From: Haladaptatus paucihalophilus DX253
GTDB lineage: Archaea > Halobacteriota > Halobacteria > Halobacteriales > Haladaptataceae
NCBI RefSeq assembly: GCF_000376445.1
Contig: NZ_AQXI01000001.1
Coordinates: 1,892,962-1,956,961, forward strand
Direction of reading: 5' to 3'
Length of the DNA: 64,000 nucleotides
A program made the position numbers and the translations under genes. Shown one piece after another: positions 15,755 through 27,650 of this stretch (the first letter of the stretch is position 1; every line of letters starts with the position of its first letter). The notes beneath the pieces are model-generated. The model had not been told where the DNA came from. It did no database searches and saw only the letters and a list, made by a program, of their open reading frames with translations.

Positions 15755-16603
15755 TTACAGCGCGTCGGCAATCGTCGGCGCGACGGACACCTGACTGACC
15801 GCCCGCTCGATGGTGTCGGTGCCGAACACCGCTTCGACGCCCGCCTGTGCGAGTTTCGTTCGTGCGTTCCGCGCGAGCATCGGGTGGACGCAGGTGACGA
15901 AGACGCGGCCCACGTCGCGCTCCTGGAGGAGGGAAACGGCCTCGCTCATGGTCGAACCGGTGGCGATGATGTCGTCTGTGACGACCACGTCGCGGCCGGT
16001 GACGTCGGTATCGCTGGGCGTGATTTCGACCTCGGAGCCGGAGATGCGTTTCTTCTCGAAGTAGTCGATAACGCCGTCGCCGTACGTGTCACGGACCGTT
16101 TCGGCGATGTCGAGCGCGCCGTCGTCCGGGGAGAGGAAAACGGGGTCGGTCAAGTCGTCCGGGAGAGGTTCCGCGAGACGACCTGCGGCGTCGATAGATT
16201 CGGCGGGAACGTCGAAGAAGTCACAGATGGCCTCCTCGTGCGGGTTGACCGTGAGCACGCGGTCGGTTCCGGTGCTGATGGCGCGAGCGACCGCTCGGGC
16301 GGAGATGGGGTGGCCGCGGTCGAACGCCCTGTCCTGCCGTGCGTAGCCCATGTAGGGGAGGACGGTGACGACCTCCTCGGCACCCCACTCGCGGGCGGCG
16401 TCCTGCAGTTGGAGCAGTTCGAGGTGGGCGTCGCTGGAGACGGTCGAGGCGACGACGACGGCACGACCACCCTCGAATTCGGGAGCGGTTGCGAGCAGTT
16501 CGCCGTCCGGGAACGATTCGTACTCCACGAACCCGAGAGGTTCGTTCGATTCGTCGGCGAGAGTGGCCGCCAGAGATTGCGAGGCGGACCCACTGAGTAT
16601 CAT
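15755..16603 (-). CDS. prs: Ribose-phosphate diphosphokinase (PRPP synthetase)
   Basis: Makes PRPP from ribose 5-phosphate and ATP, feeding histidine, purine and pyrimidine synthesis. The matching users hisA/hisB, pyrE, upp and purO all lie in this window. The protein is 282 residues, close to the short archaeal class. The pyrophosphate/ATP loop appears as YMGYARQDRAFDRGHPISARA, and the PRPP-binding motif as VVVTDDIIATGSTM. The ATG at 16603 gives MILSGSASQSLA, the normal archaeal start. The upstream open frame to 16750 is rejected because it is Arg-rich and family-unlike. Confidence 0.95.
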   Translation of the reverse strand: MILSGSASQSLAATLADESNEPLGFVEYESFPDGELLATAPEFEGGRAVVVASTVSSDAHLELLQLQDAAREWGAEEVVTVLPYMGYARQDRAFDRGHPISARAVARAISTGTDRVLTVNPHEEAICDFFDVPAESIDAAGRLAEPLPDDLTDPVFLSPDDGALDIAETVRDTYGDGVIDYFEKKRISGSEVEITPSDTDVTGRDVVVTDDIIATGSTMSEAVSLLQERDVGRVFVTCVHPMLARNARTKLAQAGVEAVFGTDTIERAVSQVSVAPTIADAL

Positions 16604-16822
16604 ACGCGGACACTGGATATGCCGGGTTAAACCGGTTTTCACTCGTCGGCACGTGTGCCGAGTCAAGCCCTCACAGTCACCCGTCAACCACGCCGATTTC
16701 GAACGTCGCTCGCCGATGATTGGGGCACGGCGGGAAGGAAACGGAAGCATCGGTCGGGAGTCGTCGAGAACGGTTCACGATTCTAAATATACGTATGAAT
16801 TCACCATATTCCAATATACTAT

Positions 16823-16832
16823 TTTATTTATA
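16823..16832 (+). promoter_or_regulatory. TATA box of the tandem winged-helix gene
   Basis: TTTATTTATA centred about 28 nt before the ATG at 16856, inside an unusually AT-rich stretch (about 16781-16855). The spacing implies a leaderless transcript. Confidence 0.65.
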
Positions 16833-16855
16833 CAATGAAATGGTAGTGTCACACA

Positions 16856-17341
16856 ATGGTTTCGGTAACCCGGTTGAGCATCGAGACATCGCTTCCGGTA
16901 GACGAAAACGAGTTGACCCCCGCGGAAAAGGGGGTCCTGAATCTCCTCGCGGAAGGTCGGTGCACGCCAGCGTACGTCGGTAGCGAACTGGCTATCGGAG
17001 CGGACACGGCGCGGTCGGTTCTCGACGGGTTCCGCGATGTCGATATCGTCGGGAAACCGTACCGTGGTCTCTACGAGTTACAGGTCGGGGAAGAAACGGA
17101 CCACGAAAAGTATCGAAATACGGAGGCGGTTCTCTTCGACGTCCCGTTCGACGACGACCAATTCAGGCCGACCGAGCGGGGTATTTTGAATCTGCTCGCC
17201 GAAGGCAGAGCGATACCCGCATACCTCGCGCAAGAACTCGACGTGACGCAAGAATGGGTGAAAAATCGGCTCCACGAACTCACCCGTCTCGGCCTCGTTC
17301 GACGGCGGTATCGGGGGCTGTACGAACTCGACGTGGACTAG
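16856..17341 (+). CDS. Tandem winged-helix (wHTH) DNA-binding protein
   Basis: 161 residues made almost entirely of two homologous modules. Module 1 (about residues 20-77) starts LTPAEKGVLNLLAEGR and ends YRGLYELQV. Module 2 (about 101-161) starts FRPTERGILNLLAEGR and ends YRGLYELDVD. Each has the helix-turn-helix spacing of a MarR/PhiH1-like winged helix with a conserved RGLYEL wing. A single chain with two matched domains could bind DNA as a pseudo-dimer. It has a strong promoter of its own and is unlinked to an obvious target gene. The stop overlaps the 3' end of the convergent beta-propeller gene by four bases. The regulator role is inferred. Confidence 0.75.
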   Translation: MVSVTRLSIETSLPVDENELTPAEKGVLNLLAEGRCTPAYVGSELAIGADTARSVLDGFRDVDIVGKPYRGLYELQVGEETDHEKYRNTEAVLFDVPFDDDQFRPTERGILNLLAEGRAIPAYLAQELDVTQEWVKNRLHELTRLGLVRRRYRGLYELDVD

Positions 17342-18105
17342 CGGACGGAAAGCCCCGTCACGCCCGTCAACCCGAGATGGCGACTCCGCCAGCCGTCTCC
17401 GACGGTCGCCAGAACGGTCCCGGATTCGGTCGCGGCGTACACGCCGTCGCCGAACGCGATGTCCGCGATAGGGTCATCGACCGGAAGCGAAACGTCCGTC
17501 CACTCGTTGCCCGCTCGGGAAACCACTTGGTCGGCGGTTGCGGCGTACGCATCCCCGTCCGTCGCGCTCACGACGCGGAAATCGCCCGCCAAGACGTCCA
17601 TCCAGCCGTTGCCGAGTCGATAGAGACCGTCGGCGGTCGCGGCGAGCGGAACACCCGACGCGGAGACGTCCCGAACGTCGGTCAACCCGGCGTGTTGCAC
17701 ACCTTCAGACGAAACGCGGTAGACGCCCTCGGCGGTGGCGACCAGATTGCCGTCGATGGCTCGCACGGCGTCGAGCGTCGCCAATTCGTGCCACTCACCG
17801 TTGTAACGCGCGAGTCGGCCGTCCTCCCCCGCCGCGAGAAGGTCGTCGCCGTCGAATCCGACGGTGACGGCGGGGCCGAATTCGAGCGGCGAAAACGCCG
17901 CGTCGAGCACGTCCTCGTCGGTCGCAACGGCGAGGGTTCCGTCGATCGCGGCGATGTCGCGGGCGGCACAGCGGTGGGCCAGCGAGAACTCGCCGATGAT
18001 GTCACCGGAGACTTCGACGCGAGCGACGCCCAGTTCGGTGGCGACGAAGACCGTCGTCGTTCCCTCCCGGTCGCTGTAGACTCGCTTCTCGTCGATGGTG
18101 GTCAT
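17338..18105 (-). CDS. Haloarchaeal beta-propeller-like protein
   Basis: A 255-residue soluble protein built of repeated short beta units (such as TVFVATELGVARVEV, GNLVATAEGVYRVSS, VPLAATADGLYRLGN and DGVYAATESGTVLATVG). In each, an (A/V)ATxxGVYR-like motif recurs about every 40 residues. This is the pattern of a six- or seven-bladed propeller. I associate it with a haloarchaeal beta-propeller family of unknown function. No signal peptide is seen, so it is probably a cytoplasmic binding scaffold. It converges with the tandem winged-helix gene. Confidence 0.7.
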   Translation of the reverse strand: MTTIDEKRVYSDREGTTTVFVATELGVARVEVSGDIIGEFSLAHRCAARDIAAIDGTLAVATDEDVLDAAFSPLEFGPAVTVGFDGDDLLAAGEDGRLARYNGEWHELATLDAVRAIDGNLVATAEGVYRVSSEGVQHAGLTDVRDVSASGVPLAATADGLYRLGNGWMDVLAGDFRVVSATDGDAYAATADQVVSRAGNEWTDVSLPVDDPIADIAFGDGVYAATESGTVLATVGDGWRSRHLGLTGVTGLSVR

Positions 18106-18181
18106 ACACGAGTGAAGGACGCAACTCGGGGAAAACGTTCGGATTCCCGCCTACCGAAGTCCGGTCGAAAACCGCCGTCGT

Positions 18182-18862
18182 TCACGAGAAGTCGCCGAGT
18201 CCCGTCTGTGTATCCTCTTCGGCGGCGACTTCCGCGACGATTTCGGGGGAATCGTTGTCCGGGCTGTTCACTTTCGTCGAAACCGGATAGGCTCGCATTT
18301 CTCCTGCGGGGAACGGGTCGAGCACGGCCCGTCGTTCGTCCGCGTCGCCCGTGAGCCACGTCGTCTCCTCGTCGGGGTCGAGGATGACGGGCATCCGGTG
18401 GTGAATCTCGCCGACGACGTCGTTGGGTTCGGTGGTGACCACGGTGAACGACGTTTTCCGCTCCCCGTTCTGCCACGGTTCCCACAGGCCAGCCATGGCG
18501 AACGGCTCGCCGTCCGTTCTGGTCATCCGGTAGGGCTGTTTACCCGTCGGGGTCTTCTTCCAGTCGTAAAAGCCGTCCGCGAGGACGAGACACCGGCGGT
18601 CGCGGTAGGCGTCCCGAAAGCTCGGCTTGTCGGCCAGCGTCTCGGCGCGGGCGTTGATGTGCCCGCCGCCGAACTCGTCGGCCCAGTGGGGGACGAGTCC
18701 CCACGTCGGGAAGCGAATCTCCTCGGGCGCGTCGTTGCGAACGACCGGGTGTTCCTGACCGGGCGCGACGTTGTACCGCGGACGAAGCGGACGGACCGGT
18801 TCGGCGTCGAACCGGTCGGTGAGTTCGTCCTGCGGTGCGAAGAGCGAAAGGCGGCCACACAT
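18182..18862 (-). CDS. SRAP-family protein (YedK/HMCES-like abasic-site sensor)
   Basis: SRAP proteins crosslink through Cys2 to abasic sites in single-stranded DNA and shield them during replication. The ATG at 18862 gives MCGRLSLF, placing the essential Cys at position 2 after Met removal. Other family marks are RYNVAPGQ, the WGLVPHWA strand, Asn in HINARAET, and His in EIHHRMPVIL. The usual catalytic Glu in GFYEW is Asp here (GFYDWKK), a conservative but notable change confirmed in the nucleotides. The length of 226 residues is normal. The longer frame to 18937 would put residues before Cys2 and is rejected. Confidence 0.92.
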   Translation of the reverse strand: MCGRLSLFAPQDELTDRFDAEPVRPLRPRYNVAPGQEHPVVRNDAPEEIRFPTWGLVPHWADEFGGGHINARAETLADKPSFRDAYRDRRCLVLADGFYDWKKTPTGKQPYRMTRTDGEPFAMAGLWEPWQNGERKTSFTVVTTEPNDVVGEIHHRMPVILDPDEETTWLTGDADERRAVLDPFPAGEMRAYPVSTKVNSPDNDSPEIVAEVAAEEDTQTGLGDFS

Positions 18863-18994
18863 ACTCGATACTCCGCGACGAAGAGGAATAAACGCGAGGG
18901 CAAACGGGTTCGACGGGTCGGAATCGGAGGTCTCCACTGGGAAGTCGGAGGTACCGACAGAGCAAATCGGAGGTACCTTCGGATTGCGACCTGT

Positions 18995-20161
18995 TTACGA
19001 CGGCTGTTCGTGCGGGGCGAGTTCGTCTTCCGTGCGCCCGCTGCTGTTGATGATGTTGAACGCCGTCATCAGGTCGGTGCGGGAGATGATGCCCGTGACG
19101 TTCCCGTCGGCATCGATGACCGGGAGACGGCCGATGTTGTGTTGTTGAATCGTTTCGAGCGCGTCCATCGCGTCGCTGTCGGCGGGAATCGTCTTGACGT
19201 CGGTGGACATCACTTCCCGGACGGTGTAGGCGTCGCGTTCGACCTGCCTGACGCTCCGAGCGTCGTCCAGCGTTATCATGCCGACGAGTTCGCCGTCGTC
19301 GATCACGGGATAGCCGGTGTGGCGCTGTCGGAACATGGTTTCGAGGAGGTCGGCAATGGACATGTCCGACGAGACGGTGTGTAAATCCTCGGCACCGGTC
19401 ATCACGTCCCGGACGCGGACGTTTCGGAAGGTCGCCGAGAGGACCGACTGTTGGGCCTCGCTGCTCGCGCCGATGTAGATGAAGAAGGCGATACCGATGA
19501 GCAACAAGTTGCCGCCGAGGAGGCCGAACAGCCCCAGGAGGATGGCGAACACTTTACCGACCTCGGCGGCGGTCTGGGTGGCTTGCGCGAACGGGCGCGT
19601 CCGGGCGAGGAGCGCCCGGAGGACGCGCCCCCCGTCCATCGGGAAGCCGGGGAGGAGGTTGAACGCGGCGAGGACGAGGTTCATCAGGGCGAGGTAGCCG
19701 AAGACGAACCGAACGGCCTGCAGGTTCGTCGGGACGACGAAGAGCACGGCGAACGAGAGAACGCCGAGGACGATACTGACGACGGGACCCGCGACGGCGA
19801 TGAGGAGTTCCTCGGACCACTCCTCCGGCTGGTCGGTGAGGCGAGCGATGCCGCCGAATATCCACAGCGTGATGGAGTCGATGGGGAAGCCGAAATGCAT
19901 CGAAACGACGGAGTGGCCGAGTTCGTGGAGGACGACACCGACGAACAATCCGATGGCAGCGGCGGCACCGAGATAGAGCGGCATCATCCCCGACGAGAGG
20001 GGACCGGCATCTAACCCGAGACCCCAGAGATCGTTCATTATCTGGACCCATTGTTCGACCTGCGTTCCGATGAGCCACGCAAACACGGGCAGAATGAACA
20101 GGAAAGTGAGGTCGAGTTTTATCGGGATGCCGAGCACGCTCCCGATTTTGAAGCTTCGCAT
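18995..20161 (-). CDS. Site-2-type metalloprotease (M50) with two CBS domains
   Basis: An intramembrane zinc protease of 388 residues. The zinc ligands are in HELGH (His79, Glu80, His83), and the third ligand is Asp176 in NLLPGFPMDGGR. About six transmembrane segments cover residues 10-245. The C-terminal half has two CBS motifs (VRDVMTGAEDLHTV and VREVMSTDVKTIPA) that usually bind adenine nucleotides, so proteolysis may respond to energy state. The ATG at 20161 gives MRSFKIGSVLGIPIKL, the usual N-terminus. Substrates are unknown. It is divergent from the TnpB-like gene, with 90 bp between starts. Confidence 0.93.
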   Translation of the reverse strand: MRSFKIGSVLGIPIKLDLTFLFILPVFAWLIGTQVEQWVQIMNDLWGLGLDAGPLSSGMMPLYLGAAAAIGLFVGVVLHELGHSVVSMHFGFPIDSITLWIFGGIARLTDQPEEWSEELLIAVAGPVVSIVLGVLSFAVLFVVPTNLQAVRFVFGYLALMNLVLAAFNLLPGFPMDGGRVLRALLARTRPFAQATQTAAEVGKVFAILLGLFGLLGGNLLLIGIAFFIYIGASSEAQQSVLSATFRNVRVRDVMTGAEDLHTVSSDMSIADLLETMFRQRHTGYPVIDDGELVGMITLDDARSVRQVERDAYTVREVMSTDVKTIPADSDAMDALETIQQHNIGRLPVIDADGNVTGIISRTDLMTAFNIINSSGRTEDELAPHEQPS

Positions 20162-20251
20162 GGTTAGCTGTAGCACCGGAACCGCCTTAAACCTCGTCGC
20201 GGTGAGCGGCGTCCCGAAGTATTCAAGGGGGCGCTCTGGGGAGAAAATAGC

Positions 20252-21463
20252 GTGAGCGGTCCCGAATATTTCAGACGGACGGCGGTGACGCGCCTGGCGG
20301 TGGAGGACGAGGACCACGAGCGGCTGCTGTCCATGGTACGCGAGTGGAAACGCGGGTGCCAAATCGCGGTCAACGCCGCGTGGGGTGTCTGTCACACCCG
20401 AAACGAGGTGCAAAAACTGGCGTACGAGAAGTTGCGCGAGCGTACCAGCCTCGGAAGCCAGCACGCCGTTCTCGCCACGCACCGCGCCGCCGAAGCGATA
20501 AAACGTGCCCTGGAACGGGACGACGATGCGGCAAAACCAGAGTTCACCAGTCCGACCGTGGTCTACGACAGTCGCACGCTAACGCTGTTTGACCATCGGA
20601 ACATCAGCCTGACGACGACCGGCGACCGGGTTCGCTGTCGTCTCGTGTTTCCCGACCACGGCTACCAATCGCGGTATCTGGACGACGACCGCTGGGAGCC
20701 AGCGAAGAGCACGCTGCACTACCGTGACGGCGAGTTTCACTTCCATCTCGGATTTCGACGCCCCCGCCCGGACGTGGACCTTCCGACCGAAGACGCCACC
20801 GTCCTCGGCGTCTCGCTCGGCGTCGAAAACCTCGCCGTGACGAGCACGGCCCGCTTTTTCTCCGGCGCGGAACTCACCCACCGACACGCCGAGTTCGCCG
20901 ACCTCCGCGAGGACCTCCGCGAGACGAACACCCGGAGCGCACGACGAACGCTGCGGCAAGCCGGGGAACGAATCGAGAATTTCACCCGCAATACCCTCCA
21001 CGAAGTTGCCGGTGGAATCGTCTCGGAAGCGGAGCGACACGGCTGTTCCGTCATCGCGTTCGGCGAACTCGAAGGCGTACAGGAGATGCTCACGGAAGCG
21101 GCCCCGTTCCACGGGCAAGCGTTCAAGCGATTGTTCGAGTTCGTCGCGTATCGGGCGGCCGAGCGGGATATCACGGTGGTACAGGTGAACCCTGAGTACA
21201 CGAGCCAGCGCTGTACGTCGTGTGGGTTCACGCATCCGCAGAATCGGGACGTGGAGAACAACCGGTTCGAATGTCTGAAATGCGGCAGCGAGGCCAACGA
21301 CGATTACAACGCGGCAAAGAACGTCGGGTTCCGCTGTATCCGGCGCGGGCCGCTGTCGTCGCGGGGCGTCGGTGCGAAATACTGCGCGCTCGGTTCCGGG
21401 CGGGTGACGCCGGACGGGGAGTTCGTCCCGAACGAAGAACTCGAAGCGGTGGGAAAACCTTAG
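20252..21463 (+). CDS. TnpB-family protein with altered RuvC catalytic residues (likely nuclease-dead)
   Basis: 403 residues related to IS200/IS605 (IS1341-type) TnpB, the RNA-guided RuvC nuclease ancestral to Cas12. The RuvC-I motif normally reads GVDLGVENLA. Here it is GVSLGVENLA, with Ser188 in place of the catalytic Asp (codon TCG). The RuvC-II motif, usually F-E-x-L, reads FGEL, putting Gly271 at the catalytic Glu and Glu272 next to it. RuvC-III keeps Asp351 in DYNAAKN. The zinc ribbon (CTSCG and CLKCG) and the C-terminal SGRVTPDGEF are intact, so the frame is maintained rather than decaying. The start is GTG. No TnpA transposase or transposon end is seen, and the cupin gene begins 24 bp downstream. 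It could be a TldR-like RNA-guided repressor or another domesticated TnpB. This is inferred. Confidence 0.85.
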   Translation: MSGPEYFRRTAVTRLAVEDEDHERLLSMVREWKRGCQIAVNAAWGVCHTRNEVQKLAYEKLRERTSLGSQHAVLATHRAAEAIKRALERDDDAAKPEFTSPTVVYDSRTLTLFDHRNISLTTTGDRVRCRLVFPDHGYQSRYLDDDRWEPAKSTLHYRDGEFHFHLGFRRPRPDVDLPTEDATVLGVSLGVENLAVTSTARFFSGAELTHRHAEFADLREDLRETNTRSARRTLRQAGERIENFTRNTLHEVAGGIVSEAERHGCSVIAFGELEGVQEMLTEAAPFHGQAFKRLFEFVAYRAAERDITVVQVNPEYTSQRCTSCGFTHPQNRDVENNRFECLKCGSEANDDYNAAKNVGFRCIRRGPLSSRGVGAKYCALGSGRVTPDGEFVPNEELEAVGKP

Positions 21464-21487
21464 CACGTCGGCTTCGAATGGAAACGT

Positions 21488-21850
21488 ATGTCCAAACCAA
21501 TCGTACGAAACGCGGACGACATCGAATACGAGGCCGTCGGAGCGGCCGACGGCATGGCGAAAGGGGTTCTCATCGGCGACGAACAGGACGCGCCGAACTT
21601 CGCCATCCGTCGATTCACGCTCGACCCCGGCGCGACGGTGCCCGAACACACGAACGAAGTCGAACACGAGCAGTTCGTGCTCGAAGGCGAGTACGTCGTC
21701 GGCATCGGCGACGAGGAGTACGAAGTCAGCGCTGGCGATTCACTGTTGATTCCGGCGGGAACGGTTCACTGGTATCGAAACGAGAGCGACGAACCGGGAG
21801 CGTTCATCTGTGCGGTGCCGAACGGGGACGACGAGATTCAGCTCGTCTAA
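21488..21850 (+). CDS. Single-domain cupin protein
   Basis: 120 residues forming one cupin barrel. Motif 1 is PGATVPEHTNEVEHEQFVLEGE, with two His and one Glu as likely metal ligands. Motif 2 is GDSLLIPAGTVHWYRN, with the third His. Small cupins of this sort bind metal and often act on small organic acids or as sensors, and no substrate can be inferred. It starts 24 bp after the TnpB-like gene on the same strand and may be co-transcribed with it. The stop overlaps the convergent 58-residue gene by four bases. Confidence 0.88.
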   Translation: MSKPIVRNADDIEYEAVGAADGMAKGVLIGDEQDAPNFAIRRFTLDPGATVPEHTNEVEHEQFVLEGEYVVGIGDEEYEVSAGDSLLIPAGTVHWYRNESDEPGAFICAVPNGDDEIQLV

Positions 21851-22023
21851 CGACACTCGGAGAGCGAGACAACGGAGTCGATAGACGAGGAAACCCACGC
21901 CGCGTCTTCGCGGGTATCGGTGATTCGAACGAGCGGTCGGTCTCGGTCGGACCCGTCCTCGATTTCGAGGATAACGTTGTCGTCGAAGCGCCGTGGAAGG
22001 TCTTCTTCTTGCGTGCCTTTCAT
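21847..22023 (-). CDS. Small acidic haloarchaeal protein, unknown function
   Basis: 58 residues from the ATG at 22023 (MKGTQEEDLPRRFDDNVILE). It has an acidic N-terminal segment, then RITDTREDAAWVSSSIDSVV. The pattern of a short peptide ending in a DAAW(V/I)SS-like stretch is one I associate with small uncharacterised haloarchaeal proteins. The frame is open to 22218, but the extra part is basic and of low quality. It converges with the cupin gene. Confidence 0.55.
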   Translation of the reverse strand: MKGTQEEDLPRRFDDNVILEIEDGSDRDRPLVRITDTREDAAWVSSSIDSVVSLSECR

Positions 22024-22264
22024 TATGCCACCATGCAGCGCTACCGTGCGCTGTCCACCGCTAGCGGTCGAACCGGCTTTGTTATGTGCCGGTTGCGGAG
22101 CGGTAGTGGCGGAATAACGACCGCTCGAAGGTGTTAGGCCGAGATTTCCGTTTTTCAACGTCGGCTTTCCACGAACGGTGACATCACCTACCACGGTCGA
22201 AAAGTGGCGATTCACCACCGTCTCGTTCGAATCGCTGAAATAGCTCCGGTGTGTAGCACGTCTC

Positions 22265-24319
22265 GTGTCGAAGCAGGCCCAGCAGGTGGAGACGCTCTTC
22301 TGCCACGAAACGGACAGGGGCTATCAGGTCGCCGCCCAGCGGGGCGGTGAGCGGCAGTTCCGTGCCATCCTCGAATTAAAGGAGACGGACGCCGGACCGC
22401 GACCGGGACGGTTTCTGTTGAAGGACGGGTCGAGCGAGAAACCGCGCAGTCCCGACGAGTTCGTCGAACTCGCACGGAACGCGAAGCGGATTCGAATCTC
22501 GCAGCAGACCTCGCCCGAGGCGCGCGAAGAGCTGAAGGAGATGCTCGACGGCTACCAACTCGACGCGAAAACGGTTCGGACGTGTCGGTTGTGCGCTAAC
22601 AAGGGACGGTATTCGCCCATCAACGGCGACACGGCCATCGATACGGGCGACGAGTACATCTGTCCCGACTGTGCGACGCGGGAACTGGAGCGGGAACTCT
22701 CGTTCAGGGGTAACCTGACGAGCGCCGCCCAGGACCGACTCGAAGACCTCCTGCTGGAAGTACAGGATTTGAAGCGAATCACGAACCTGCTCAAGGGGCG
22801 ACTCGACCCCGACCTGACGAAGTTCGACGAAATCAGCGCGAACGTCGAGGACATCGAGATGGAGCGGGTGGATTCGCTGAACCTCCACCCCGGAATCCAG
22901 AACCTGCTGGAATCGCGGTTCGATACCCTGCTCCCCGTACAGAGCCTCGCGGTACAAAACGGTCTCCTCGACGGTGACGACCAACTCGTCGTCAGCGCGA
23001 CGGCGACCGGGAAGACGCTCGTCGGCGAGATGACGGGGCTGGACCGAATGCTGAACGGGAAGGGGAAGATGCTCTTTCTCGTTCCCCTCGTGGCGCTGGC
23101 GAACCAGAAGCACGAGGATTTCGAGGAAGAGTACGGTGACCTCGCAAACGTCACCATTCGCGTCGGTGCGAGTCGGGTCCGCGACGACGGCAATCACTTC
23201 GACCCGAACGCGGACATCATCGTCGGGACCTACGAGGGTATCGACCACGCGCTCAGGACGGGGCGCGATTTGGGCGATATCGGAACGGTCGTCATCGACG
23301 AGGTTCACACCCTGCAAGAACAGGAGCGTGGCCACCGCCTCGACGGCCTCATCTCGCGGCTAAAATACTACTGCGAGGAGCGCGCCAAAGAGCGGAACGA
23401 GTACGGCGGCGCACAGTGGGTGTACCTCTCCGCGACCGTCGGGAATCCGAAGGATTTGGCGCAGTCGCTGGAGGCGAATCTCGTGGAGTTCGAGGAGCGA
23501 CCCGTCGCACTGGAGCGCCACGTCACCTTCGCCGAGGGGCACGAAAAGCCCGTGACGGAGAACAAACTCGTCAAACGCGAGTTCGACCGCGAATCCTCGA
23601 AGGGGTATCGCGGCCAGACCATCATCTTCACCAACTCGCGGCGGCGCTGTCACGAGATTTCCAGAAAACTGGAGTACAACTCCGCGCCGTACCACGCTGG
23701 GTTGGACTACGGACGGCGAAAGAAGGTCGAACGCATGTTCGCCGAGCAGGACCTCGCGGCGGTCGTCACGACCGCCGCACTCGCCGCCGGGGTTGACTTC
23801 CCGGCCTCGCAGGTCATCTTCGACTCGCTGGCGATGGGCATCGAGTGGCTGACCGTACAGGAGTTCCACCAGATGCTCGGCCGCGCGGGTCGGCCCGACT
23901 ACCACGACCGCGGGAAGGTGTACGTCCTCGTCGAACCCGACGGCAGCTATCACAACAGCATGGAAATGTCGGAGGACGAGGTGGCGTTCAAACTCCTCAA
24001 AGGCGAGATGGAGGACGTTCGAACCCTCTACGACGAGAGCGCCGCCATCGAGGAGACGCTGGCGAACATCACCGTCGGTGGGAAGGCCGCGAAGCGCCTG
24101 AACGACCGGATGATAGGCGACGTGCCGACGAAACACGCGCTCGGCAAACTGCTCGAATACGAGTTCATCCACGGCTTCTCGCCGACGCACCTCGGGCGCG
24201 TCGTCACGAGTCACTTCCTCGCGCCGGACGAGGCGTTCCGGATTTTGGACGGCATCCGGAAGGACAAGGACCCGTTCGAAATCGTCGCGGACCTCGAACT
24301 GTTCGGCGAGGACGAGTGA
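22265..24319 (+). CDS. Ski2-like superfamily 2 DEAD/DEAH-box helicase with N-terminal zinc domain
   Basis: A 684-residue SF2 helicase. The first about 200 residues form a haloarchaea-type N-terminal domain with a zinc-binding pair, CRLCANKG and YICPDCAT. The motor follows: Q-like region LLPVQSLAVQNG, Walker A SATATGKT, motif II DEVH, motif III LSAT, motif IV/V IIFTNSRRR and TTAALAAGVDFP, and motif VI QMLGRAGRP. This order places it with Ski2/Hel308-like enzymes that act on RNA or DNA, and the exact substrate is not known. The start is a GTG preceded by a TA-poor region. tRNA-Pro lies immediately downstream. Confidence 0.9.
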   Translation: MSKQAQQVETLFCHETDRGYQVAAQRGGERQFRAILELKETDAGPRPGRFLLKDGSSEKPRSPDEFVELARNAKRIRISQQTSPEAREELKEMLDGYQLDAKTVRTCRLCANKGRYSPINGDTAIDTGDEYICPDCATRELERELSFRGNLTSAAQDRLEDLLLEVQDLKRITNLLKGRLDPDLTKFDEISANVEDIEMERVDSLNLHPGIQNLLESRFDTLLPVQSLAVQNGLLDGDDQLVVSATATGKTLVGEMTGLDRMLNGKGKMLFLVPLVALANQKHEDFEEEYGDLANVTIRVGASRVRDDGNHFDPNADIIVGTYEGIDHALRTGRDLGDIGTVVIDEVHTLQEQERGHRLDGLISRLKYYCEERAKERNEYGGAQWVYLSATVGNPKDLAQSLEANLVEFEERPVALERHVTFAEGHEKPVTENKLVKREFDRESSKGYRGQTIIFTNSRRRCHEISRKLEYNSAPYHAGLDYGRRKKVERMFAEQDLAAVVTTAALAAGVDFPASQVIFDSLAMGIEWLTVQEFHQMLGRAGRPDYHDRGKVYVLVEPDGSYHNSMEMSEDEVAFKLLKGEMEDVRTLYDESAAIEETLANITVGGKAAKRLNDRMIGDVPTKHALGKLLEYEFIHGFSPTHLGRVVTSHFLAPDEAFRILDGIRKDKDPFEIVADLELFGEDE

Positions 24320-24342
24320 CACGGGTACCGAGCAAACGAAAC

Positions 24343-24350
24343 GTTTTACA
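24343..24350 (+). promoter_or_regulatory. TATA-like box of tRNA-Pro
   Basis: GTTTTACA lies 26-33 nt before the mature 5' end of tRNA-Pro, the normal archaeal distance for transcription starting a few bases before the tRNA. Confidence 0.5.
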
Positions 24351-24375
24351 CGGGGAGTGCGCTACTGAAGTGTAC

Positions 24376-24448
24376 GGGATCGTGGGGTAGCTTGGTATCC
24401 TTTCGGCCTTGGGTGCCGATAACCTCGGTTCAAATCCGAGCGATCCCA
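24376..24448 (+). tRNA. tRNA-Pro (anticodon TGG)
   Basis: The 73-nt gene folds as a cloverleaf. The acceptor GGGATCG pairs with CGATCCC, with discriminator A. The D arm is GGGT...ATCC. The anticodon arm is TCGGC/GCCGA with loop CTTGGGT, so anticodon TGG. The T arm is CTCGG-TTCAAAT-CCGAG. No intron is present and CCA is not encoded. Confidence 0.96.
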
Positions 24449-24512
24449 TAGATTTTGCGACGAACATCCTCGTGAGTCGCAAATCTATTCTGAGCTCGAA
24501 TTTGAATCAGAC

Positions 24513-24573
24513 GAGACGCAAGCGCCTCGCGGTGCTCACGGCTTCGCCGTTCGCATCGAGGCGCTTGCGTCTC
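24513..24573. repeat. 17-bp perfect inverted repeat with 27-nt loop
   Basis: GAGACGCAAGCGCCTCG at 24513-24529 is exactly complementary to 24557-24573. The loop (CGGTGCTCACGGCTTCGCCGTTCGCAT) holds a second small hairpin, ACGGCTTCGCCGT. It lies in the 227-bp gap between tRNA-Pro and a convergent small gene. It may end transcription in both directions or be part of a dispersed palindromic element. Confidence 0.8.
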
Positions 24574-24675
24574 GGCGGGGTTCACAATCCGGGCGATTTC
24601 ATTCTTGGACGACTACACCGCGAGCGACGCGTCAGCGGCACACAGCGCGTGCAAACAAAAATCGAAGGAGAGAAC

Positions 24676-24885
24676 TTACGCCGCTTCGTCGCCTTCCGCG
24701 GTCCCGTCATCCGACGAACTGTCGTCGGTATCGCCCGCCATCATCGACTTCACTTTCTTTCTCAGCACGACGTAGCCGCCGACGGCACCGATGCCGAACG
24801 CGACGGCCCCGGCTTTGCCGAAGCGCCGGTAGCCGACCTTCGCGGCCTTTTTGCCGACCGTGAGTGGTCCGAGTGGTCCGAACAT
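24676..24885 (-). CDS. Small membrane-associated protein with acidic tail, unknown
   Basis: 69 residues from the ATG at 24885. A basic N-terminus (VGKKAAKVGYRRFGKAG) leads into one Gly/Val-rich hydrophobic segment (AVAFGIGAVGGYVV), then RKKVKSMM and an acidic Asp/Ser/Glu tail. This looks like a one-span membrane protein with the basic residues inside. A GTG at 24906 is an alternative start. It is divergent from mcm, with 170 bp between starts. Confidence 0.6.
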   Translation of the reverse strand: MFGPLGPLTVGKKAAKVGYRRFGKAGAVAFGIGAVGGYVVLRKKVKSMMAGDTDDSSSDDGTAEGDEAA

Positions 24886-25054
24886 GCCTGTGGGTATTGC
24901 GTTCACGGGGATGTCCGGGATGTGGTTGCAGGTGCAAGTCGTTTATTCTACCGTGTGGGTGGAAATCGAAAGCAGCGGGGAATCGCGTTCGGTGGCGCGA
25001 GGGTCTGGACGCTTTGCGAAAGTTCTTACCTGATCGGGAACCAATGACCCATGA

Positions 25055-27151
25055 ATGGCTCGCGCGGAAAACACGGAACTGATAGACAGGTTCGAGCAGT
25101 TCTATCGGAACTATTACCGAAACGAAATCGGGGAGCTCGCCCAAAGCTACCCGAACGAAAAGCGGTCGCTGTACATCAACTGGAACGACCTGTATCAGTA
25201 CGACGCGGACATCGCGGACGATTATCTCGCGCAACCACAGCAGTTACAGGAGTACGCCGAGGAGGCGCTCCGCCTGTACGACCTCCCCGTGGACGTGAGC
25301 CTTGGGCAGGCTCACGTCCGTCTACAGAACCTGCCGGAGCACACGGATATCCGCGCGATCCGTGCCCGGCACGTCAACACGATGGTGAGCGTGCAGGGGA
25401 TCATCCGCAAGGCGACCGGCGTGCGACCGAAGATTCAGGAGGCGGCGTTCGAATGCCAGCGCTGTGGAACCTTGACTTACATTCCGCAGTCGGGCGGGGA
25501 TTTTCAGGAACCCCACGAGTGTCAGGGCTGTGAGCGACAGGGACCGTTCCGCATCAACTTCGACCAGTCGGAGTTCATCGACTCACAGAAGCTCCGCGTA
25601 CAGGAGAGTCCCGAGGGACTCCGCGGCGGCGAGACGCCACAGAGTATCGACGTGCACATCGAGGACGACATCACCGGCCACGTCTCGCCCGGCGACCACG
25701 TGACCGTGACGGGCGTCCTCCACCTCGAACAGCAAGGGAGCGGCCAGGAGAAATCCGCCGTCTTCGACGTGTACATGGAGGGCGTGTCCGTGGAAATCGA
25801 GGACGAGGAGTTCGAGGACATGGACATCACGGACGAGGACAAAGAGCAAATTATCGAACTCTCGAACGAGGGGAACATCTACGAACAGATGGTCGATTCC
25901 ATCGCCCCGGCCATCTACGGCTACGACCAGGAGAAACTGGCGATGATTCTGCAGTTGTTCTCCGGCGTGACGAAACACCTCCCGGACGGGTCGCGGATTC
26001 GCGGCGACCTGCACATGCTCCTGATCGGGGATCCGGGTACGGGTAAGTCCCAGATGCTGTCCTATATACAACATATTGCGCCGCGGTCCGTCTACACCTC
26101 CGGGAAAGGGTCCTCCTCCGCAGGGCTGACGGCTGCGGCGGTACGCGACGACTTCGGCGACGGGCAGCAGTGGACGCTCGAAGCGGGTGCGTTGGTGCTC
26201 GCGGACAAGGGTATCGCGGCGGTGGACGAACTGGACAAGATGAGTCCGGAGGACCGGTCCGCCATGCACGAGGGGCTGGAACAGCAGAAAATCAGCGTGA
26301 GCAAAGCGGGGATCAACGCGACGTTAAAGTCCCGCTGTTCGCTTCTCGGCGCGGCGAACCCGAAGTACGGGCGATTCGACCAGTACGAGTCCATCGGCGA
26401 GCAGATCAACCTCGAACCCGCGCTGATCTCCCGATTCGACCTCATTTTCACCGTGACGGACAAACCGGACCCGGATCACGACTCGCAACTGGCAGAACAC
26501 ATCCTCCAGACCAACTTCGCGGGCGAGTTGAACACGCAGCGGACGGAAATCAACGCGCCGAACATCACGGAAGAACAGGTCAACAGCCAGACGGAGGAGG
26601 TGGCACCGGCGATAGATGCCGAACTCCTCCGGAAGTACATCGCCTACGCGAAATCGAACGTCTATCCGACGATGACCGAGGAAGCCCGCGAGGCGATTCG
26701 TGATTTCTACGTCGATTTGCGCTCGAAGGGGACGGACGAGGACGCCCCGATTCCGGTCACGGCCCGGAAGCTGGAGGCGCTCGTTCGTCTCGCCGAAGCG
26801 AGCGCTCGCGTTCGACTGTCGGATACGGTCGAACGGAAGGATGCGGACCGCGTTATCGAAATCGTTCGGTCGTGTCTACAGGACATCGGCGTGGACCCGG
26901 AGACCGGACAGTTCGACGCCGACGTGGTGGAAACGGGGACCTCGAAGTCCCAACGAGACCGCATCAAGAACATCAAACAACTCATCGCGGACATCGAGGA
27001 GGAGTACGACGACGGTGCGCCCGTGGAAGTCGTCCTCGACCGAGCGGACGAGATCGGCACGGACCCCTCGAAAGCCGAACACGAAATCGACAAGCTGAAA
27101 CAGAAAGGCGAGGTGTACGAGCCGTCGACAAACCATCTTCGAACCACCTGA
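25055..27151 (+). CDS. mcm: Replicative DNA helicase MCM
   Basis: Homohexameric helicase that unwinds DNA at replication forks. It is 698 residues long and without an intein, which many haloarchaeal mcm genes carry. The N-terminal domain has a zinc ribbon (CQRCG and CQGCER). The AAA+ domain has Walker A GDPGTGKS at 325-332, Walker B AVDELDKM, the sensor stretch LGAANPKYG, and the arginine finger in SRFDL. A C-terminal winged helix ends the protein. The gene for a 94-residue protein begins one base after the stop, so the two are in one transcript. Confidence 0.97.
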   Translation: MARAENTELIDRFEQFYRNYYRNEIGELAQSYPNEKRSLYINWNDLYQYDADIADDYLAQPQQLQEYAEEALRLYDLPVDVSLGQAHVRLQNLPEHTDIRAIRARHVNTMVSVQGIIRKATGVRPKIQEAAFECQRCGTLTYIPQSGGDFQEPHECQGCERQGPFRINFDQSEFIDSQKLRVQESPEGLRGGETPQSIDVHIEDDITGHVSPGDHVTVTGVLHLEQQGSGQEKSAVFDVYMEGVSVEIEDEEFEDMDITDEDKEQIIELSNEGNIYEQMVDSIAPAIYGYDQEKLAMILQLFSGVTKHLPDGSRIRGDLHMLLIGDPGTGKSQMLSYIQHIAPRSVYTSGKGSSSAGLTAAAVRDDFGDGQQWTLEAGALVLADKGIAAVDELDKMSPEDRSAMHEGLEQQKISVSKAGINATLKSRCSLLGAANPKYGRFDQYESIGEQINLEPALISRFDLIFTVTDKPDPDHDSQLAEHILQTNFAGELNTQRTEINAPNITEEQVNSQTEEVAPAIDAELLRKYIAYAKSNVYPTMTEEAREAIRDFYVDLRSKGTDEDAPIPVTARKLEALVRLAEASARVRLSDTVERKDADRVIEIVRSCLQDIGVDPETGQFDADVVETGTSKSQRDRIKNIKQLIADIEEEYDDGAPVEVVLDRADEIGTDPSKAEHEIDKLKQKGEVYEPSTNHLRTT

Positions 27152-27152
27152 G

Positions 27153-27437
27153 ATGGACCGAATTTCCGCACTCAGAAACATCGAGGACGCCCTCTCGGAC
27201 TTCGAGTCGGGAGCGGACGAGCTACGAGAGACACAACGTCGAGTGTTGACGGTGCTACAGACGTACGCCACCGAGTTCGAAACCGAGCGTGACTTGTTCG
27301 CCTACCGAGCATATGGAGATGAGCGGGCGGAAGGTATCGTCGTCGTCGCGGAGTCGGCGGAGGACGCGCGTGGACGGGTCATCGAATTGCTCGGCGATGA
27401 AGCGGTAGAATTTCACGTCGAGAACATCAGTAAATGA
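27153..27437 (+). CDS. Small haloarchaeal protein co-transcribed with mcm
   Basis: 94 residues. The first half is a helical segment (MDRISALRNIEDALSDFESG), and the second half is alpha/beta (FAYRAYGDERAEGIVVVAES, VIELLGDEAVEFHV). It starts immediately after the mcm stop, so it is very likely translated from the mcm mRNA. I know no function. Linkage suggests a role with DNA replication or only shared regulation. Confidence 0.75.
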   Translation: MDRISALRNIEDALSDFESGADELRETQRRVLTVLQTYATEFETERDLFAYRAYGDERAEGIVVVAESAEDARGRVIELLGDEAVEFHVENISK

Positions 27438-27650
27438 CAGCATTCTGGAGATGGAAAACTAGATAAACATGCCCGGAATAGAGTAGAAGTATAACGACAG
27501 CGTGCGTAGGTGTATCAAATGCGACAAAGCCGACAAAACCTCCGGGATTTATCAGGCCCATAATAATGCAGGTGGCTAAATGATACACGAGGGATGGTAC
27601 GGGATGGACGACACAGCGAGCACGTGCGACGTTGCCGAGGGACGACCGAG

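What the first reader, a model, noticed from the sequence alone, without database searches (positions are those of the whole stretch)
20252..21463. TnpB homologue with two of three RuvC catalytic positions replaced
Direct reading gives GVSLGVENLA in RuvC-I (Ser188 for Asp) and FGEL in RuvC-II (Gly271 at the Glu site), while RuvC-III Asp351 and the zinc ribbon are kept. The rest of the frame is intact over 403 codons, so this is not decay. Nuclease-dead TnpB proteins (TldR) are known in bacteria as RNA-guided repressors. An archaeal version with this pattern would be a new case and a possible RNA-guided regulator.
Basis: partly seen in the sequence, partly recalled or inferred. Interest (0 to 1): 0.85.

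Follow-up and report, generated by a model that had tools for sequence, protein, structure and literature searches.

The report
Domesticated nuclease-dead TnpB in haloarchaea
A gene taken from a jumping DNA element has become a fixed host gene in one family of salt-loving archaea: it has lost its DNA-cutting site and its own guide RNA but is still under strong selection, so it now does some other, probably regulatory, job.

Summary
In detail: window 20252-21463 (+) is an intact TnpB-family gene with Ser188 and Gly271 at the RuvC-I and RuvC-II acid sites and Asp351 kept. It is not a lone mutant. A single chromosomal orthologue is present in 27 of 28 held genomes of the family (Haladaptatus, Halomicrococcus and a third genus); the one miss is 62% complete. 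Gly271 is invariant (27/27). All nine Haladaptatus copies have Ser/Ala at 188, and four also have His at 351, so the triad was lost stepwise. dN/dS is 0.07-0.15. The gene sits exactly in the gap between an M50 protease and a cupin gene that is empty in other families. Relatives at 53-56% identity are mobile D-E-D TnpBs whose omega-RNA ends in a fixed hairpin just past the gene. That hairpin, its synonymous constraint and any conserved downstream sequence are gone from the orthologues, and no credible parental omega-RNA is found in the window's genome. So 'nuclease-dead and exapted' is supported; 'TldR-like RNA-guided repressor' is not, since TldRs keep an adjacent guide RNA. Best reading: a host DNA-binding protein that no longer uses the parental guide RNA. 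That last step is inferred.

The parts
20252..21463 (+). Exapted, nuclease-dead TnpB-derived gene (403 aa): WED/REC, RuvC, zinc ribbon and C-terminal tail all present
   Evidence: ORF; NCBIfam/Pfam; AF2 model pLDDT 82 with best PDB matches AsCas12f Z 25.1 and ISDra2 TnpB 8h1j Z 18.7
20813..20815 (+). Codon 188, Ser, in place of the RuvC-I catalytic Asp
   Evidence: Ser or Ala in all 9 Haladaptatus orthologues; Asp in Halomicrococcus, the third genus and all 22 mobile relatives
21062..21064 (+). Codon 271, Gly, in place of the RuvC-II catalytic Glu
   Evidence: Gly 27/27 orthologues, Glu 22/22 mobile relatives; aligns to residue 324 of AsCas12f1
21302..21304 (+). Codon 351, retained RuvC-III Asp (His in four Haladaptatus orthologues)
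   Evidence: aligns to residue 401 of AsCas12f1
21194..21196 (+). Glu315, new invariant acid one residue from the alternative-Glu (Ealt) position, which is Pro314
   Evidence: 27/27 in orthologues, mostly Ala in mobile relatives; Ealt definition from PMC10711439
21299..21301 (+). Asp350, new invariant acid next to residue 351
   Evidence: Asp 27/27 in orthologues, Ala 22/22 in mobile relatives
21203..21286 (+). TNB zinc ribbon with C321, C324, C341, C344
   Evidence: Pfam PF07282 and alignment; dN below that of mobile relatives
20217..20227 (+). AAGTATTCAAG, BRE/TATA-like promoter element about 25-35 nt before the start codon (leaderless transcript inferred)
   Evidence: present upstream of all 27 orthologues printed
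21464..21487 (+). 24-nt gap where the omega-RNA 3' end and guide would lie; neither is present
   Evidence: no motif, no model hit
18995..20161 (-). Divergent M50 metalloprotease with CBS domains (left neighbour of the ancestral site)
   Evidence: Pfam; synteny
21488..21850 (+). Cupin gene (right neighbour of the ancestral site)
   Evidence: Pfam Cupin_2; synteny
22265..24319 (+). DEAD-box helicase gene, conserved flank used to find the empty site

Best explanation
In the ancestor of this family a mobile TnpB inserted between an M50 protease gene and a cupin gene and became a host gene. It lost the RuvC-II Glu, then in Haladaptatus the RuvC-I Asp, and in one subclade the RuvC-III Asp, and it lost the omega-RNA that overlapped its 3' end. 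SHOWN: family-wide single-copy retention, empty site in other families, purifying selection, stepwise loss of the triad, loss of the omega-RNA at the locus, and retention of the WED/REC, zinc-ribbon and RuvC-III regions. INFERRED: it cannot cut DNA in Haladaptatus (about 0.93), and it works as a host nucleic-acid-binding regulatory protein through the retained WED/REC cleft, which reads the TAM duplex in TnpB, and the zinc ribbon, without a parental-type guide RNA (about 0.4-0.5 for this mode). Its targets and output are not known.
For: (1) Orthologue in 27 of 28 family genomes at 65% identity or more, then a drop to 56% or less outside; monophyletic with 100/97 support. (2) Conserved gene order in the family loci examined; M50 and cupin adjacent without the gene in 10 of 14 genomes of other families, eight of them with a 71-145 bp gap. 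(3) dN/dS 0.07-0.15. (4) Gly271 27/27; Ser/Ala188 in 9/9 Haladaptatus; His351 in four. (5) Mobile relatives end in GTAGGGTGGGGTWGTTGAC at or just past the stop, after which copies diverge; absent in orthologues; a covariance model finds it in dozens of family loci but at none of the 14 orthologue loci searched, with best E 0.23 in the own genome. (6) Raised 3'-terminal codon identity in mobile relatives (0.84/0.72/0.92 against mean 0.63) is not seen in orthologues at codons 361-400 (0.60/0.66 and 0.53/0.62). (7) Residues fixed in mobile relatives are kept at 68-89% in WED, REC, RuvC-I and TNB but 33-40% in RuvC alpha1-2 and RuvC-II/lid; dN shifts the same way.
Against: No expression, binding or phenotype data. 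Retained WED/REC residues may reflect folding rather than DNA binding. Net charge fell from about -4 to -17, which does not favour stronger nucleic-acid binding, though halophilic acidity is a confounder. A diverged guide RNA in trans cannot be excluded. The invariant E315 and D350 could be a shifted active site in the genera that keep Asp188.
Confidence: 0.5

Rival explanations
1. TldR-like RNA-guided repressor that uses a strongly diverged guide RNA encoded elsewhere in the genome.
For: TldRs are a proven fate of dead TnpBs (PMC13418256); WED/REC and zinc ribbon retained; full TnpB/Cas12f fold predicted.
Against: Adjacent omega-RNA lost in the orthologues; parental scaffold undetected in the own genome and in G002, G009, G014, G017, G026, which all keep the gene; RuvC alpha1-2, matching the omega-RNA stem contacts of ISDra2 TnpB, kept only 40% of fixed residues and 2 of 6 basic ones.
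Confidence: 0.2
2. Antagonist or sponge of active mobile TnpBs: it binds their omega-RNAs or TAMs and protects the chromosome.
For: Many family genomes carry dozens of related mobile omega-RNA ends.
Against: The gene is kept at full conservation in genomes without detectable parental omega-RNA, including the window's own; the omega-RNA contact region has lost conservation.
Confidence: 0.12
3. Re-registered nuclease: E315 and D350 replace the lost acids, so some orthologues still cut nucleic acid.
For: Both acids are invariant in 27 orthologues and mostly absent in mobile relatives; E315 is one residue from the Ealt site of Fanzors (PMC10711439), where the own-genome paralogues L006/L007 do carry Glu; Asp188 persists in two genera.
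Against: The Ealt position itself is Pro in 27/27; all Haladaptatus lack Asp188 and four also lack Asp351, yet E315 and D350 stay, so they are not tied to catalysis there; RuvC-II/lid dN is about twice that of mobile relatives.
Confidence: 0.07
4. Structural or protein-protein role with no nucleic-acid binding, for example an adaptor acting through the zinc ribbon and C-terminal tail.
For: Zinc ribbon, RuvC-III helix and C-terminal tail are among the slowest-evolving regions at protein level; net charge is more negative than in mobile relatives.
Against: REC and WED, the DNA-facing parts of TnpB, are also well kept.
Confidence: 0.11

Closest known systems
TldR (TnpB-like nuclease-dead repressors; PMC13418256 and the earlier report it cites)
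   Same: TnpB-derived, RuvC acids replaced, immobile and linked to non-transposon genes
   Different: TldRs keep an adjacent guide-RNA cassette and guide-RNA binding and are described there in bacteria and prophages; here the guide RNA is gone from the locus and the gene is a vertically inherited gene of an archaeal family
Mobile haloarchaeal TnpB clade of 53-56% identity (L064-L083)
   Same: Closest sequence relatives, same domain order, probable parent group
   Different: D-E-D catalytic residues, omega-RNA hairpin at the 3' end in most, often several copies per genome
sot0042-type haloarchaeal TnpB (Rfam RF02656; own-genome L006, L007)
   Same: TnpB family; Gly at the canonical Glu site
   Different: Carry the Ealt glutamate and an RF02656-like RNA at the 3' end; the finding has neither
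Inactivated Cas12 variants (types V-C, V-M and others; PMC12669027)
   Same: RuvC-inactivated members of the same superfamily that can block transcription without cleavage
   Different: Guided by CRISPR arrays; no array near this gene
Catalytically inactivated exapted TnpBs noted in the 2023 PNAS census by Altae-Tran and colleagues (from memory; paper not held)
   Same: The general kind: TnpB recruited with a dead site, suspected regulatory role
   Different: I could not check whether this haloarchaeal clade is listed there

Membership tests
TnpB / guided_TnpB family | Family profile above curated cut-off | tested here: met
   NF040570 126.4 bits against cut-off 100; PF07282 72.4 against 26.3
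TnpB / guided_TnpB family | WED-REC-RuvC-zinc-ribbon fold | tested here: met
   AF2 model pLDDT 82; AsCas12f Z 25.1, ISDra2 TnpB Z 18.7
Active TnpB nuclease | D-E-D catalytic triad | tested here: not met
   S-G-D here; Gly271 in 27/27 orthologues; A/S-G-H in four
Active TnpB nuclease | omega-RNA overlapping the 3' end of the gene | tested here: not met
   motif, covariance model and synonymous constraint all absent
TldR | RuvC nuclease residues inactivated | tested here: met
TldR | Adjacent guide-RNA cassette retained | tested here: not met
   24-nt gap to the next gene; no parental scaffold; downstream sequence unconserved in the third genus
TldR | Stable link to non-transposon host genes | tested here: met
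   fixed position between M50 and cupin genes
TldR | RNA-guided binding and repression of a target | not testable with these tools
   needs RIP-seq and ChIP-seq
Ealt TnpB / Fanzor-like active site | Glu six residues before the first CxxC (ExxxxxxCxxC) | tested here: not met
   Pro314 at that position in 27/27; Glu315 is one residue off; definition from PMC10711439
Type V CRISPR effector (Cas12) | Adjacent CRISPR array | tested here: not met
   no array-like repeats in window 16000-27500

The most novel reading that the evidence does not exclude
A TnpB turned into a guide-free, sequence-reading DNA-binding protein: an RNA-guided nuclease that lost both scissors and guide and was kept family-wide in an archaeal lineage as a transcription or chromosome factor using its TAM-reading lobe.
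Probability: 0.35. Interest if true: 0.85.

Novelty: new variant of a known kind. Interest (0 to 1): 0.64.

Why it matters
Exapted dead TnpBs are known as RNA-guided repressors in bacteria. This case is archaeal, conserved across a whole family, and shows the order of events: RuvC-II acid, then RuvC-I, then RuvC-III, with the guide RNA lost too. It offers a natural test of what the TnpB scaffold can do without a guide RNA, in culturable Haladaptatus species that can be compared with D-G-D sister genera.

Tried and rejected
Pseudogene or sequencing error: rejected, 27 intact orthologues with low dN/dS. Lone mutant: rejected. Compensating Glu at the Ealt position or at the GAENI-type position: not present (Pro314, Lys356). 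Rfam omega-RNA families at the locus: none; the controls L007 and (below the gathering score) L006 hit RF02656. CRISPR array nearby: none. Viral-contig search with the single protein found no relative; with a profile it found 13 distant TnpBs, nine of which went into the structure alignment. The structure tool gives no coordinates, so active-site distances could not be measured. The first strand-blind alignment was wrong because genome-search loci are not oriented; redone. The M50 gene was read in the wrong frame and is placed. The 2023 TnpB census and the 2024 TldR paper are not in the library. Literature searches found no report of this archaeal clade, which is weak evidence since most subscription papers are missing.

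Full report
OBSERVATION. It scores above the cut-offs for guided_TnpB and the Cas12f1-like zinc-ribbon domain. A phmmer alignment to AsCas12f1 puts Gly271 on residue 324 and Asp351 on residue 401, which I recall as its catalytic Glu and Asp. In 22 mobile haloarchaeal relatives the same columns hold Asp, Glu and Asp. An AlphaFold2 model (pLDDT 82, 14-sequence alignment) has the complete TnpB/Cas12f fold, with S188 and G271 at strand ends and D351 at a helix start.

CONSERVATION. Searching the 28 held genomes of the family found an orthologue at 65% identity or more in all but one, which is 62% complete. A sample of 293 genomes of the order showed no orthologue outside the family; the next relatives stop at 56% identity. 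Named records include Haladaptatus sp. DYF46, H. salinisoli, H. halobius and Halomicrococcus gelatinilyticus; the third genus is unnamed in the tool and is probably Halorussus (my inference). The 27 orthologues form one clade with 100/97 support on a long stem.

STEPWISE LOSS OF THE TRIAD. Gly271 is in all 27. Position 188 is Asp in Halomicrococcus and the third genus, but Ser or Ala in all nine Haladaptatus. Position 351 is His in four of these nine (L013-L016), which thus lack all three acids. Pairwise dN/dS is 0.07-0.15 throughout. A gene that loses its catalytic residues one by one while the rest stays under purifying selection has a function other than cutting. Two acids are new and invariant, E315 and D350. 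E315 lies one residue from the alternative-glutamate site of Fanzor-like TnpBs, defined in PMC10711439 as a Glu six residues before the first zinc-ribbon CxxC; that position is Pro in all orthologues. Since E315 and D350 persist in Haladaptatus that lack Asp188 and even Asp351, I do not read them as a catalytic replacement, but geometry was not measurable here.

ORIGIN. In the family the order is M50 protease (-), this gene (+), cupin (+), helicase (+), with 28 bp to 2.2 kb between this gene and the cupin; in Halomicrococcus the cupin is adjacent but the M50 gene was not found in the flank. In 10 of 14 loci from other families the M50 and cupin genes are neighbours and the gene is absent, in eight with a gap of only 71-145 bp. 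The gene therefore entered that gap. A conserved BRE/TATA-like element AAGTATTCAAG precedes the start.

LOSS OF THE GUIDE RNA. Copies of the mobile relatives within one genome stay alike up to GTAGGGTGGGGTWGTTGAC at or just past the stop and then diverge, which marks the omega-RNA 3' end and the start of the guide. Their last 40 codons show raised synonymous identity, as expected of an overlapping RNA. The orthologues show no such rise at codons 361-400, no motif, and no shared sequence after the stop in the third genus. A covariance model of the terminal hairpin found dozens of copies in family genomes (E down to 1e-17), none at the 14 orthologue loci searched and none credible in the window's genome (best E 0.23); G002, G009, G014, G017 and G026 also gave no match. 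The pattern search agreed, with zero hits for the reversed control. The first-look filter scored only 150 candidates per genome, so a strongly diverged RNA could be missed.

WHAT THE PROTEIN STILL KEEPS. Of residues fixed in the mobile group, the orthologues keep 83% and 68% in the two WED parts, 71% in REC, 76% around RuvC-I and 89% in the zinc ribbon, but 40% in RuvC alpha1-2 and 33% in RuvC-II/lid. In ISDra2 TnpB, WED/REC reads the TAM duplex and RuvC alpha1-2 holds the omega-RNA stem 1 and triple helix (PMC10097598). dN shows the same shift: RuvC-II/lid rose from 0.042 to 0.10 and 0.08, while the C-terminal tail fell from 0.053 to 0.031 and 0.018 and the zinc ribbon from 0.094 to 0.033 and 0.027. 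This fits a protein that dropped cleavage and omega-RNA binding and kept its DNA-facing lobe and zinc ribbon. It is an inference from conservation; no binding was measured.

COMPARISON AND NOVELTY. It belongs to the TnpB family by profile and fold. It works like a TldR in being a dead, immobile, host-linked TnpB, but fails the TldR feature of an adjacent guide RNA (PMC13418256). Exaptation of inactivated TnpBs is a known kind, so I file it as a new variant: archaeal, family-wide, and without its guide RNA.

Noticed in passing
L035, L036, L078, L081 (relatives at 50-56% identity): These D-E-D TnpBs lack the GTAGGGTGGGGTWGTTGAC end; several share a GATATC-containing stretch after the stop, and L035, L078 and L081 lie next to a tRNA gene. 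They may be a tRNA-associated TnpB group with a different omega-RNA end.
   Followed up: partly
Own genome G000:C2, loci L006 and L007: Two TnpB genes with Gly at the canonical Glu site but an Ealt-type Glu before the zinc ribbon, and a 3' RNA matching Rfam RF02656 (sot0042; L007 above the gathering score, L006 below it).
   Followed up: partly
Own genome G000:C4:248285-249055 (L005): A truncated TnpB with RuvC-I Asp kept but no aligned RuvC-II or zinc ribbon, probably a decaying copy.
   Followed up: no
G003, G004, G005 and other family genomes: Far more omega-RNA hairpin hits (up to 55 in G003) than TnpB matches of this clade (8 in G003), which suggests other TnpB groups share the hairpin or that guide RNAs without a gene are common.
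   Followed up: no
window 21194-21196 and 21299-21301: E315 and D350 became invariant acids in the orthologues although the catalytic acids were lost; their role is unexplained.
   Followed up: partly
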